The notes under the pieces are model-generated. The model did no database searches, was not told the origin of the DNA, and saw nothing but the letters and a program-made list of their open reading frames with translations. This document shows, one piece after another, positions 49,101-52,238 of a DNA stretch of 64,000 nt (positions within the stretch are counted from its first letter, which is position 1; every line of letters begins with the position of its first letter). A program made the translations under genes and the position numbers. The stretch is from a virus, in the IMG/VR virus record IMGVR_UViG_3300006735_000013, positions 62,001 through 126,000 of that record. One strand, 5' to 3'.

Positions 49101-51596
49101 CTATATGCTCACATGAGCAAAACCTTCTTTTCTTTCGATGTTTATCTGCATGTCGACACAATCCTTTAGGCTGTCTAAGTGTGAAATGAGGATCACCGTC
49201 TTAAAATACCCCTTTATCATGTCGAGAATTCGAACAAACCCTTCCATATTCTCTTCATCTAGTGCCGTGCCCGGCTCGTCTAATATAAATAGATCAGACT
49301 TCGGTAAATTTGAAACAGTCAAGAATGCTAAGCGGATGGCCATTGAGGCTATAGTTTTTTCAGCTCCTGAACCCATTTCCAAAGGTCTTGGTTCATGCTT
49401 TGCATGTTTGATAAATATGTCCAGCTTGTCTTCACTGTTCTGAATGAAAACTTCAAAGTCTACAATATTTGTAAGTATCTTAGCTATTTCTTGATTTATA
49501 TGAGGTAACCTTCGCTTGATTACCTCATATGACACACCATTAGGATGGCAACAAGTCATCAGCAGGTGGTAGGCTGCAAAGTTTTGTTCTAGATCTTTCT
49601 TTTCTTTTAGCTGAGATTTGGTATGTTTTAGTTTTTGTTCTAGCGATCCGTGTCTCTGGTGTAGTTTCATGATCTTGTTTTCACACCCTTCTATTGAAAC
49701 CTCCTTCTCTCTAACTGCATTTTGCATCTGCTTTAGTTGAGAAAGTAATTGCTTCAAGTTTTCTATCGCTTCCTTATTCTGGTTGTATTCCTCGCTTTTA
49801 TTCTTCAAGTTTTCGAGCTCGACTTGTTCCCGGAACAGCAGGGCGTCAGCTCGTTCAACAACAATCTTGGACGTAGCTATTGCTGTAGCAATATCGCCCT
49901 TCTTTTGCACCAGCATATCGTATTTGTTTAAGTGATCTTCTACAATGCCGGGGTTCAAGTCTCTAATTTGTAGACCTATGTTGTTGGTGGATACAGCATT
50001 CTCCTTCATCCTACTATCATATATCTGAATCAATTCACCAGCTTTGTGAGCATCCTTAATAAATTTACAAGATGGGTATTTGCTACCACAGGGAACTTCA
50101 GACAACAGATCATGCCTCCTACTATACCTTGTTTTTTCATCTGAAAAGCCAGCCATCTCCTTTATCAGCTCACTCAATTCACTTTTTTTATTATCTAAAA
50201 TAATCTTCTTTTCCCTATAGGAAGATACCTCAAAACTATCCAAAAAGTCACTAATCTTTACAAATCTAACTTCATCTTCCTCTACTTGTCTCTGAGTTTT
50301 CAGCCTATTTGCATTGGCTTCTAGTATGATTCTTTCTTTTCTGTCAATTTCCTGCTGTGTCAACACCGGATCAATGATCTCGGCCGGTACAGAGTCTATC
50401 TTTTCCGATAGTTGTTTTAAGCTTGTTGACAAATCTTGCAAATCTTCTCTCATGCACTTACATTCTGCCTTGTGTGTTTCAATGCCTAGTTCGCTTTTTG
50501 TGATGTCTAACTTGATCGATTTGATCTCTTTTTCAAAATCAGTGCCTTCGAGTCGTTTCAAGGCAACTTTTGTTGCTGCCGACTCCTCTTTTGCTATTTT
50601 GAATTTTTTATCAAAAATTTCCAAATCTAAAAACTTAGCTAAGAATTCTTTTCTCTTTGTTGATCCCTCATTGATGAAAGATAGAGAATCTATTTGGCTT
50701 GCCATTGAGGTAGCTAAAAAATCACCAAGTGTGCCGAAATACTTTCTAACATTTCTATCCGTATCCTGCCTTGATGTTCCGTTCAATTCCACAACAGTAC
50801 CTGACATGTCTTTGCTATAAAATTCAAGATCAGTACTTGCTTCGAGTGTTTCTACACCTTTTAATCTTTTCTTATATTTTTCTGATGTTCTCTCTACCAC
50901 ATATTCTGTGTCATCTATTTTTATAGTTGCAGTGGCTTTACATAGAGGCATGTTCTGGTTTATGATATTTAGGTTTTTACGAATAGATTTACTAGTTGAG
51001 TTATACATAGAATACAGAAGTGTGTCCACAATTGATGACTTTCCGGAATAATTCTTTCCAAAAATCCCCACAATGCCTTCCAGTTTGGTAAAATCAATAG
51101 AGTTGCCCAAACCATAATTGAAAAGGCTATCCCACTCTAGACTCTGTAGGGACCAATGGACGTTCCTCATCACATCCTCGTCCTCTTCAATACGCGTGTT
51201 ATATTTCTTATTTAGATCGTATACCTTTTTCATTACCTCATCTGTAACGTCAAACTCCTTTAGGTATTCTGACATTAGATCTTCTTGGGTCTTGAGGTCT
51301 CTCAGGTCCTGTTTTTTGATTCCTTCTGGTGCTTCAACTGTTATTTGCTTGCCGGCGGCGCGGTTCAAGTAAGTTACCGACTCCGGGTTGTAGCGGTATT
51401 TTACTACATCGACGGCTTTTCTAACTTTATCAAGAGTAACATTCTCGTTCGAGACTATACGCAAACGTGCACCAGAGGGCGGTTTTGCTCTAGGTAAGTT
51501 TCCTGATTTTGTTAGCTCTAAAGTGACAAAGGGTTTGGGGTTCTCAAAAGTGATAAGTCTATTGGTAAACTTGTCCTTACTTTCAATATCCCACAA
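49101..51596 (-). CDS. recombination nuclease ATPase subunit, T4 gp46/Rad50-like, in frame with gp47
   Basis: 831 codons from a TTG. The SMC-type ATPase has Walker A GKNYSGKSS near 180, a long coiled coil with a zinc-hook-like CGSKYPSC near 510, signature MGSGAEKT near 755 and Walker B FILDEPGTALDEEN near 790. The first 140 residues are not gp46: they continue gp47 (DKGYLLWDIESKDK, then FVTLEL), being its C-terminal region. The frame is open without a break from the TGA at 51642 that ends gp47. The true gp46 start may be ATG 51170 (GAGG 5 bases upstream) or none, if the two are joined. With gp47 it resects DNA ends for recombination. Confidence 0.9.
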   Translation of the reverse strand: MWDIESKDKFTNRLITFENPKPFVTLELTKSGNLPRAKPPSGARLRIVSNENVTLDKVRKAVDVVKYRYNPESVTYLNRAAGKQITVEAPEGIKKQDLRDLKTQEDLMSEYLKEFDVTDEVMKKVYDLNKKYNTRIEEDEDVMRNVHWSLQSLEWDSLFNYGLGNSIDFTKLEGIVGIFGKNYSGKSSIVDTLLYSMYNSTSKSIRKNLNIINQNMPLCKATATIKIDDTEYVVERTSEKYKKRLKGVETLEASTDLEFYSKDMSGTVVELNGTSRQDTDRNVRKYFGTLGDFLATSMASQIDSLSFINEGSTKRKEFLAKFLDLEIFDKKFKIAKEESAATKVALKRLEGTDFEKEIKSIKLDITKSELGIETHKAECKCMREDLQDLSTSLKQLSEKIDSVPAEIIDPVLTQQEIDRKERIILEANANRLKTQRQVEEDEVRFVKISDFLDSFEVSSYREKKIILDNKKSELSELIKEMAGFSDEKTRYSRRHDLLSEVPCGSKYPSCKFIKDAHKAGELIQIYDSRMKENAVSTNNIGLQIRDLNPGIVEDHLNKYDMLVQKKGDIATAIATSKIVVERADALLFREQVELENLKNKSEEYNQNKEAIENLKQLLSQLKQMQNAVREKEVSIEGCENKIMKLHQRHGSLEQKLKHTKSQLKEKKDLEQNFAAYHLLMTCCHPNGVSYEVIKRRLPHINQEIAKILTNIVDFEVFIQNSEDKLDIFIKHAKHEPRPLEMGSGAEKTIASMAIRLAFLTVSNLPKSDLFILDEPGTALDEENMEGFVRILDMIKGYFKTVILISHLDSLKDCVDMQINIERKEGFAHVSI

Positions 51597-51641
51597 TAAG
51601 TAACCCTTATCTAATGATTCGCCGAAGTTTTGCTGGACTGT

Positions 51642-52238
51642 TCAACCTGCATACCAAACTCTGCCTTCGGCGTCAAGTTGCTGGGTCTTGTGTATATCGC
51701 CAAGGAAAGCGAAGTCAAAACTATCAAAAATGCTAATATCATGATCCCCTCCGAGGGTCCAATTTTGGTCAGTCTTAGACTTGTCTATGGACCCGTGATA
51801 TAGTGCTATATTAATTATATCCTTATTTGTAGGTTTTACCCAGTTTTCTTCGTCAAATACTGACAGGACATTTAGACAGAAATTCTTATCTATGTTAGTC
51901 TCGCCAGCATTTCTAAGCAGTATAAGGTTAGGATTACTAATCGCCCTAACAATTGGCGATATTGCATCCTGTCTGCTATCATTCCTCAAATTGCCGTCAT
52001 GGTTTCCCAAGATAATATATGTGGGTGCAATAGCCGCCAGATTCACAAAGAATTCGCGACAAAGGTCAACAAATTCTGGTGAAATTTGAGTTTTAGTGTG
52101 GGCGATATCGCCGCAATGAATGATATAGTCTACTTTCTCTTCTTTTATTGATTTGTATAGTTGCTTGAATACTTCTCTATATTCAAAGTGATATTTTAGA
52201 TTCCGGATATGGGTGTCCGCAATATGAGCAAATCTCAT
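51642..52238 (-). CDS. recombination nuclease subunit, T4 gp47/Mre11-like, ended early by TGA
   Basis: 198 residues, shorter than T4 gp47 (339). All phosphoesterase motifs are present: DTH at 8-10, CGDIAH with Asp 44, GNHD at 78-81, ALYHGSI, and GDIHKTQ near 180. It stops with VWYAG and TGA, where relatives continue with YxGSxxQQNFGE. In the same frame after the TGA the sequence goes on as TVQQNFGESLDKGYLLWDI. So the core enzyme is whole but its C-terminal partner-binding region is beyond the stop. It may be a nonsense mutation, a sequencing error or a recoding site. A sigma70 promoter and a GGAGG site precede ATG. Confidence 0.9.
   Translation of the reverse strand: MRFAHIADTHIRNLKYHFEYREVFKQLYKSIKEEKVDYIIHCGDIAHTKTQISPEFVDLCREFFVNLAAIAPTYIILGNHDGNLRNDSRQDAISPIVRAISNPNLILLRNAGETNIDKNFCLNVLSVFDEENWVKPTNKDIINIALYHGSIDKSKTDQNWTLGGDHDISIFDSFDFAFLGDIHKTQQLDAEGRVWYAG

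What the first reader, a model, noticed from the sequence alone, without database searches (positions are those of the whole stretch)
49101..52238. gp47 and gp46 share one frame, broken by a single TGA
From the gp47 ATG (52238) to the gp46 stop (49101) one frame runs for 1046 codons with only one internal stop, TGA at 51644-51642. The sequence on both sides is continuous gp47: VWYAG, stop, TVQQNFGESLDKGYLLWDI. Relatives of Mre11 have Ser at this place (YxGSxxQQ), and TGA is one base from the Ser codon TCA. No stop separates the gp47 C-terminal region from the Rad50-like ATPase, so with the TGA removed this would be an Mre11-Rad50 fusion protein. Possibilities: sequencing error, recent nonsense mutation, suppressed or read-through stop, or restart at ATG 51170 for gp46.
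Basis: partly seen in the sequence, partly recalled or inferred. Interest (0 to 1): 0.75.

Follow-up and report, generated by a model that had tools for sequence, protein, structure and literature searches.

The report
Lone stop in phage repair-enzyme fusion
This marine phage lineage makes its DNA-end-processing nuclease and motor (Mre11 and Rad50) as one fused protein, a kind of fusion already known in viruses, and the single stop codon in this copy is seen in no relative, so it is most likely a sequence error or a one-off disabling mutation.

Summary
From ATG 52238 to TAG 49101 one frame has a single internal stop, TGA at 51644-51642. It lies inside the Mre11 nuclease domain, not between two genes. 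In 154 related IMG/VR loci (96 distinct full-length proteins, 1031-1059 aa) the frame is unbroken and this position is always Ser, by both TCN and AGY codons. So the fused gp47-gp46 (Mre11-Rad50) protein is the lineage's normal state and the TGA is private to this record. It is the only clean in-frame nonsense in about 30,700 homology-covered codons. The part after the stop keeps all 106 positions invariant in relatives, so the change is very recent or an error. No suppressor tRNA was found, TGA ends about a fifth of the genes, the downstream RNA folds no better than chance, and ATG 51170 is not conserved. Viral Mre11/Rad50 fusions were described in 2011 (PMC3175470). Verdict: a member of a known kind carrying a singleton stop; only reads can separate error from mutation.

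The parts
49101..52238 (-). Mre11-Rad50 (gp47-gp46, SbcD-SbcC) fusion frame, 1,045 codons plus TAG, interrupted once
51642..51644 (-). The internal TGA, codon 199; Ser in all 154 other loci
51543..52238 (-). Mre11-type metallophosphoesterase (nuclease) domain, about residues 1-232; invariant D8, H10, D44, N79, H80, H148, H183 in relatives
   Evidence: Pfam PF00149; invariant columns; limits from the model of L082
51309..51542 (-). Region in the place of the Mre11 capping domain, about residues 233-310
   Evidence: model of relative L082; assignment inferred
51183..51296 (-). Two helices (315-329, 333-352) in the place of the Mre11 Rad50-binding helix-loop-helix
   Evidence: model of relative L082; assignment inferred
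50550..51167 (-). Rad50 N-terminal ATPase lobe with Walker A GKNYSGKSS (residues 394-402)
   Evidence: Pfam AAA_23
49548..50537 (-). Coiled coil, about residues 568-897, with the apical cysteine turn at 50067-50090 (C717-x6-C724)
   Evidence: model; column counts
49104..49535 (-). Rad50 C-terminal ATPase lobe with signature GSGAEKT and Walker B LFILDEP
   Evidence: Pfam SMC_N
51168..51170 (-). ATG proposed as restart; SD-like GAGGACGAGG upstream, but Met not conserved in relatives (22 of 97)

Best explanation
The locus is one gene for an Mre11-Rad50 fusion protein of a marine T4-like phage lineage. By analogy with T4 gp46/gp47 the intact protein should resect DNA ends for recombination-dependent replication and repair: the ATP-driven Rad50 part clamps and bridges DNA, and the Mre11 part, linked in cis, cuts (function inferred, not shown). 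The TGA at codon 199 is a singleton without function: either a base-calling/assembly error (about 0.5) or a very recent nonsense mutation in the sequenced genome (about 0.4). If it is real and not read through, only a 198-residue nuclease stub is made and the ATPase is lost or made at trace level.
For: Fused unbroken frame with Ser (TCN 141, AGY 13) in all 154 other loci; 96 distinct full-length fused proteins. No stop at this motif elsewhere in viral contigs against at least 120 TCN matches. All frames complete in 80 further loci are fused. Post-stop part keeps 106 of 106 invariant positions. Only clean nonsense among about 30,665 homology-covered codons, no frameshifts. No suppressor tRNA; TGA is an ordinary terminator in 27 of 121 long ORFs. 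Domain calls, model and fold matches agree with Mre11-Rad50.
Against: Reads were not available, so neither error nor mutation is shown. Records very near the window may be hidden by the search tools, so sibling strains with the same TGA cannot be excluded. Ordinary leakiness of TGA could still yield some full-length protein.
Confidence: 0.9

Rival explanations
1. Base-calling, consensus or assembly error at one base: the sampled phage really carries a Ser codon and an intact fusion.
For: Singleton among 155 loci; no decay after the stop; no other broken gene in the record; the closest relative's codon differs by one base.
Against: The record shows no frameshift or other clean nonsense, so its general quality looks good.
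Confidence: 0.5
2. Real, very recent nonsense mutation: this genome, or the variant that dominated the assembly, is defective or impaired in end processing.
For: A single substitution suffices; an otherwise intact frame is what a recent mutation would leave; the record has no other sign of poor sequence.
Against: The gene is present and unbroken in every relative examined, so loss should be costly; not seen in any other record.
Confidence: 0.4
3. Functional stop: leaky, suppressed or programmed read-through gives a nuclease stub plus some fusion protein.
For: TGA is in general the leakiest stop (own knowledge); the frame on both sides is fully constrained.
Against: No relative has a stop there; no suppressor tRNA in the record; TGA used as an ordinary terminator; RNA from the stop onward not unusually folded, z -0.34.
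Confidence: 0.04
4. A new split: gp46 is made from its own start at ATG 51170 and the 198-aa piece is a stand-alone nuclease.
For: An SD-like GAGGACGAGG precedes ATG 51170, and translation from there would give a whole Rad50-like ATPase.
Against: By the model of a relative, the stub lacks the last strands of the nuclease fold, the capping region and the Rad50-binding helices. Met at 357 is not conserved, 22 of 97. Residues 200-356 show no loss of constraint.
Confidence: 0.04

Closest known systems
Viral Mre11/Rad50 (SbcD/SbcC) fusion proteins: Mimivirus R555 and its aquatic viral homologs (PMC3175470, 2011)
   Same: N-terminal Mre11 part, then a short linker, then a Rad50 part in one frame; Asp replaces the first His of the last metal motif (here GDIH), as reported for R555; abundant in aquatic viruses.
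   Different: R555 is 1,351 aa with a longer coiled coil; this lineage is 1,031-1,059 aa in T4-like tailed phages; this one copy carries a stop.
Microcystis phage Mel-JY01 WWT39521.1 ('AAA domain containing protein', 1,066 aa)
   Same: Same fused layout in a phage named with its host, as one CDS.
   Different: About 26-43% identical, and uninterrupted.
T4 gp47/gp46 and bacterial SbcD/SbcC
   Different: Two separate genes there; one fused gene in this lineage.

Membership tests
Viral Mre11/Rad50 fusion protein | Mre11-type nuclease and Rad50-type ATPase encoded in one uninterrupted frame | tested here: inconclusive
   Met in 154 relatives and in 96 full-length proteins; in the window itself one TGA interrupts it.
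Viral Mre11/Rad50 fusion protein | Nuclease metal-site residues (DxH, GD, GNHD, H, GxxH) | tested here: met
   D8, H10, D44, G78-N79-H80-D81, H148 and G180-D181-I182-H183 present in the window and invariant in relatives.
Viral Mre11/Rad50 fusion protein | Rad50 Walker A, signature, Walker B and coiled coil | tested here: met
   GKNYSGKSS, GSGAEKT, LFILDEP; helices 568-897 in the model of a relative.
Viral Mre11/Rad50 fusion protein | ATP-dependent nuclease activity on DNA ends | not testable with these tools
   Needs purified protein.
Programmed stop read-through or recoded TGA | Stop conserved at this place in relatives | tested here: not met
   0 of 154 relatives; 0 pattern matches in viral contigs.
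Programmed stop read-through or recoded TGA | Suppressor tRNA, or TGA no longer used as a terminator | tested here: not met
   Record's tRNAs are Pro, Gly, Lys, Arg, plus a tmRNA; TGA ends 27 of 121 long ORFs. Host tRNAs unknown.
Programmed stop read-through or recoded TGA | Unusually stable RNA structure just after the stop | tested here: not met
   z = -0.34 against shuffles.

The most novel reading that the evidence does not exclude
The TGA is a genuine, maintained stop in this strain, and low-level read-through makes two products from one gene: a nuclease stub and a small amount of the Mre11-Rad50 fusion.
Probability: 0.03. Interest if true: 0.5.

Novelty: new member of a known kind. Interest (0 to 1): 0.18.

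Why it matters
The stop itself matters little: it warns that automatic annotation would call two genes, gp47 and gp46, where the lineage has one. The useful point is that the fused Mre11-Rad50 gene is the rule in a large marine phage lineage (every complete frame examined). This supports on long contigs what PMC3175470 could confirm for only a few metagenomic scaffolds, and offers fused proteins with a fixed 1:1 ratio of the two parts for biochemistry.

Tried and rejected
Suppressor tRNA: none in the window or the rest of the record. Stop-codon reassignment: TGA is used as an ordinary terminator. Stop recurring elsewhere: none. Sibling records by an exact 36-base pattern with two codon bases left open: none, but the tool may hide very near records. 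RNA structure after the stop: ordinary. Restart at ATG 51170: Met not conserved. Pseudogene decay after the stop: 0 of 106 invariant positions changed. General poor sequence quality: no frameshift and no other clean nonsense; other apparent stops sit mostly in antisense or spurious ORFs with 10-14 of 24 matching flanks and one supporting relative. Intron or intein at the stop: the frame is continuous, nothing is inserted.

Full report
Observation. The frame from ATG 52238 to TAG 49101 on the minus strand has one internal stop, TGA at 51644-51642, codon 199. The gene starts after a strong Shine-Dalgarno. Residues 1-198 match SbcD/Mre11 (Pfam Metallophos; phrog_100). The part after the stop begins with the rest of the nuclease and continues into an SbcC/Rad50 ATPase (AAA_23, SMC_N, phrog_77). 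The stop therefore lies inside the nuclease domain, not at a gene boundary. The window is bases 62001-126000 of a 159,578-base IMG/VR virus record, with T4-type portal and terminase genes.

Relatives. Two scans of viral contigs brought about 160 related loci. With an X at codon 199 as query, 154 other loci align straight through. All have Ser there, 141 by TCN and 13 by AGY codons, and no stop occurs in any of those alignments. Some loci are the same contig fetched twice; they give 96 distinct full-length proteins of 1,031-1,059 aa. In the 80 of these that were fetched, every frame complete in the fetched DNA continues about 830-860 residues past the motif, so none is split before the ATPase. 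The pattern itself may favour the fused clade. The fused state is also present in Microcystis phage Mel-JY01 (1,066 aa, one CDS) and in a 735-kb uncultured phage (1,202 aa). So fusion is the normal, intact state of this lineage and the TGA is private to the window among the records I could see.

Age and quality. In a leave-one-out test over 97 aligned sequences, the window departs from positions invariant in all the others at codon 199 only; 0 of 106 invariant positions after the stop are changed. Over the whole record about 30,665 codons are covered by homology to four large relatives. The TGA at codon 199 is the only stop supported by all four relatives with 21-23 of 24 identical flanking residues, and there is no frameshift. 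The other apparent stops come mostly from antisense or overlapping spurious ORFs with poor flanks. The change is thus very recent or not in the genome at all. Reads were not available, so I cannot separate these two.

No sign of use. TGA terminates 27 of 121 long ORFs. The record's tRNAs are Pro, Gly, Lys and Arg, plus a tmRNA; there is no suppressor. The 85 bases from the stop onward fold no better than shuffles, z = -0.34. The proposed restart ATG 51170 has an SD-like stretch upstream, but only 22 of 97 sequences have Met there.

How the intact protein should work. The AlphaFold model of the closest relative (L082; mean pLDDT 81, pTM 0.47, so the relative placement of domains is uncertain) shows a nuclease domain to about residue 232, an alpha/beta region to about 310 in the place of the capping domain, two helices at 315-352 in the place of the Rad50-binding domain, a linker of about 8 residues, and then a Rad50 ATPase split by a coiled coil with a cysteine turn (C717-x6-C724). 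Mre11-Rad50 complexes are the best solved matches, and full-length DNA repair exonucleases of giant viruses are the best viral matches. [quoted passage not shown] By homology the fusion should process DNA ends for recombination-dependent replication; this is inferred. A 198-residue stub would keep the metal-site motifs but lose the last strands of the nuclease fold and everything that joins it to the ATPase.

Known or new. Mre11/Rad50 fusions were described in 2011 for Mimivirus R555, for some plasmids, bacteria and eukaryotes, and for a Bacillus phage, with abundant relatives in aquatic viral metagenomes (PMC3175470). This lineage shares their domain order, a short linker, and the Asp in place of P. 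furiosus Mre11 His206 (here G180-D181-I182-H183). It is a new member of that kind. The singleton stop deserves a read check and little more.

Noticed in passing
L187:508-815 (minus strand), i.e. G000:C1:508-815, outside the window: The virus record carries a complete tmRNA gene (tag ANDDVEIFEDYALAA; Rfam RF00023, 104.9 bits). None was found in the 190-kb relative G002 or in the fetched parts of G001, G003, G004. tmRNA in marine phages is known (PMC9004378).
   Followed up: partly
L194:4292-8517 (LR756508, 484-kb uncultured phage): Here the gp47-gp46 gene is interrupted shortly before the homologous Ser codon by a 305-aa ORF with a TnsA-like nuclease match (PF08722); perhaps a homing-endonuclease or intron insertion. 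No Rfam intron match.
   Followed up: partly
window 50067-50090: The coiled-coil apex has C-x6-C in most of the lineage, while a few relatives (L153, L156) have the usual Rad50 zinc-hook CxxC.
   Followed up: no
L198:3995-6052 (CP070664, MAG labelled candidate division WOR-3): A phage-type fusion gene, 55% identical, runs into a stretch of N followed by unrelated genes; it may be a chimeric join, a masked stretch or an integrated phage.
   Followed up: no
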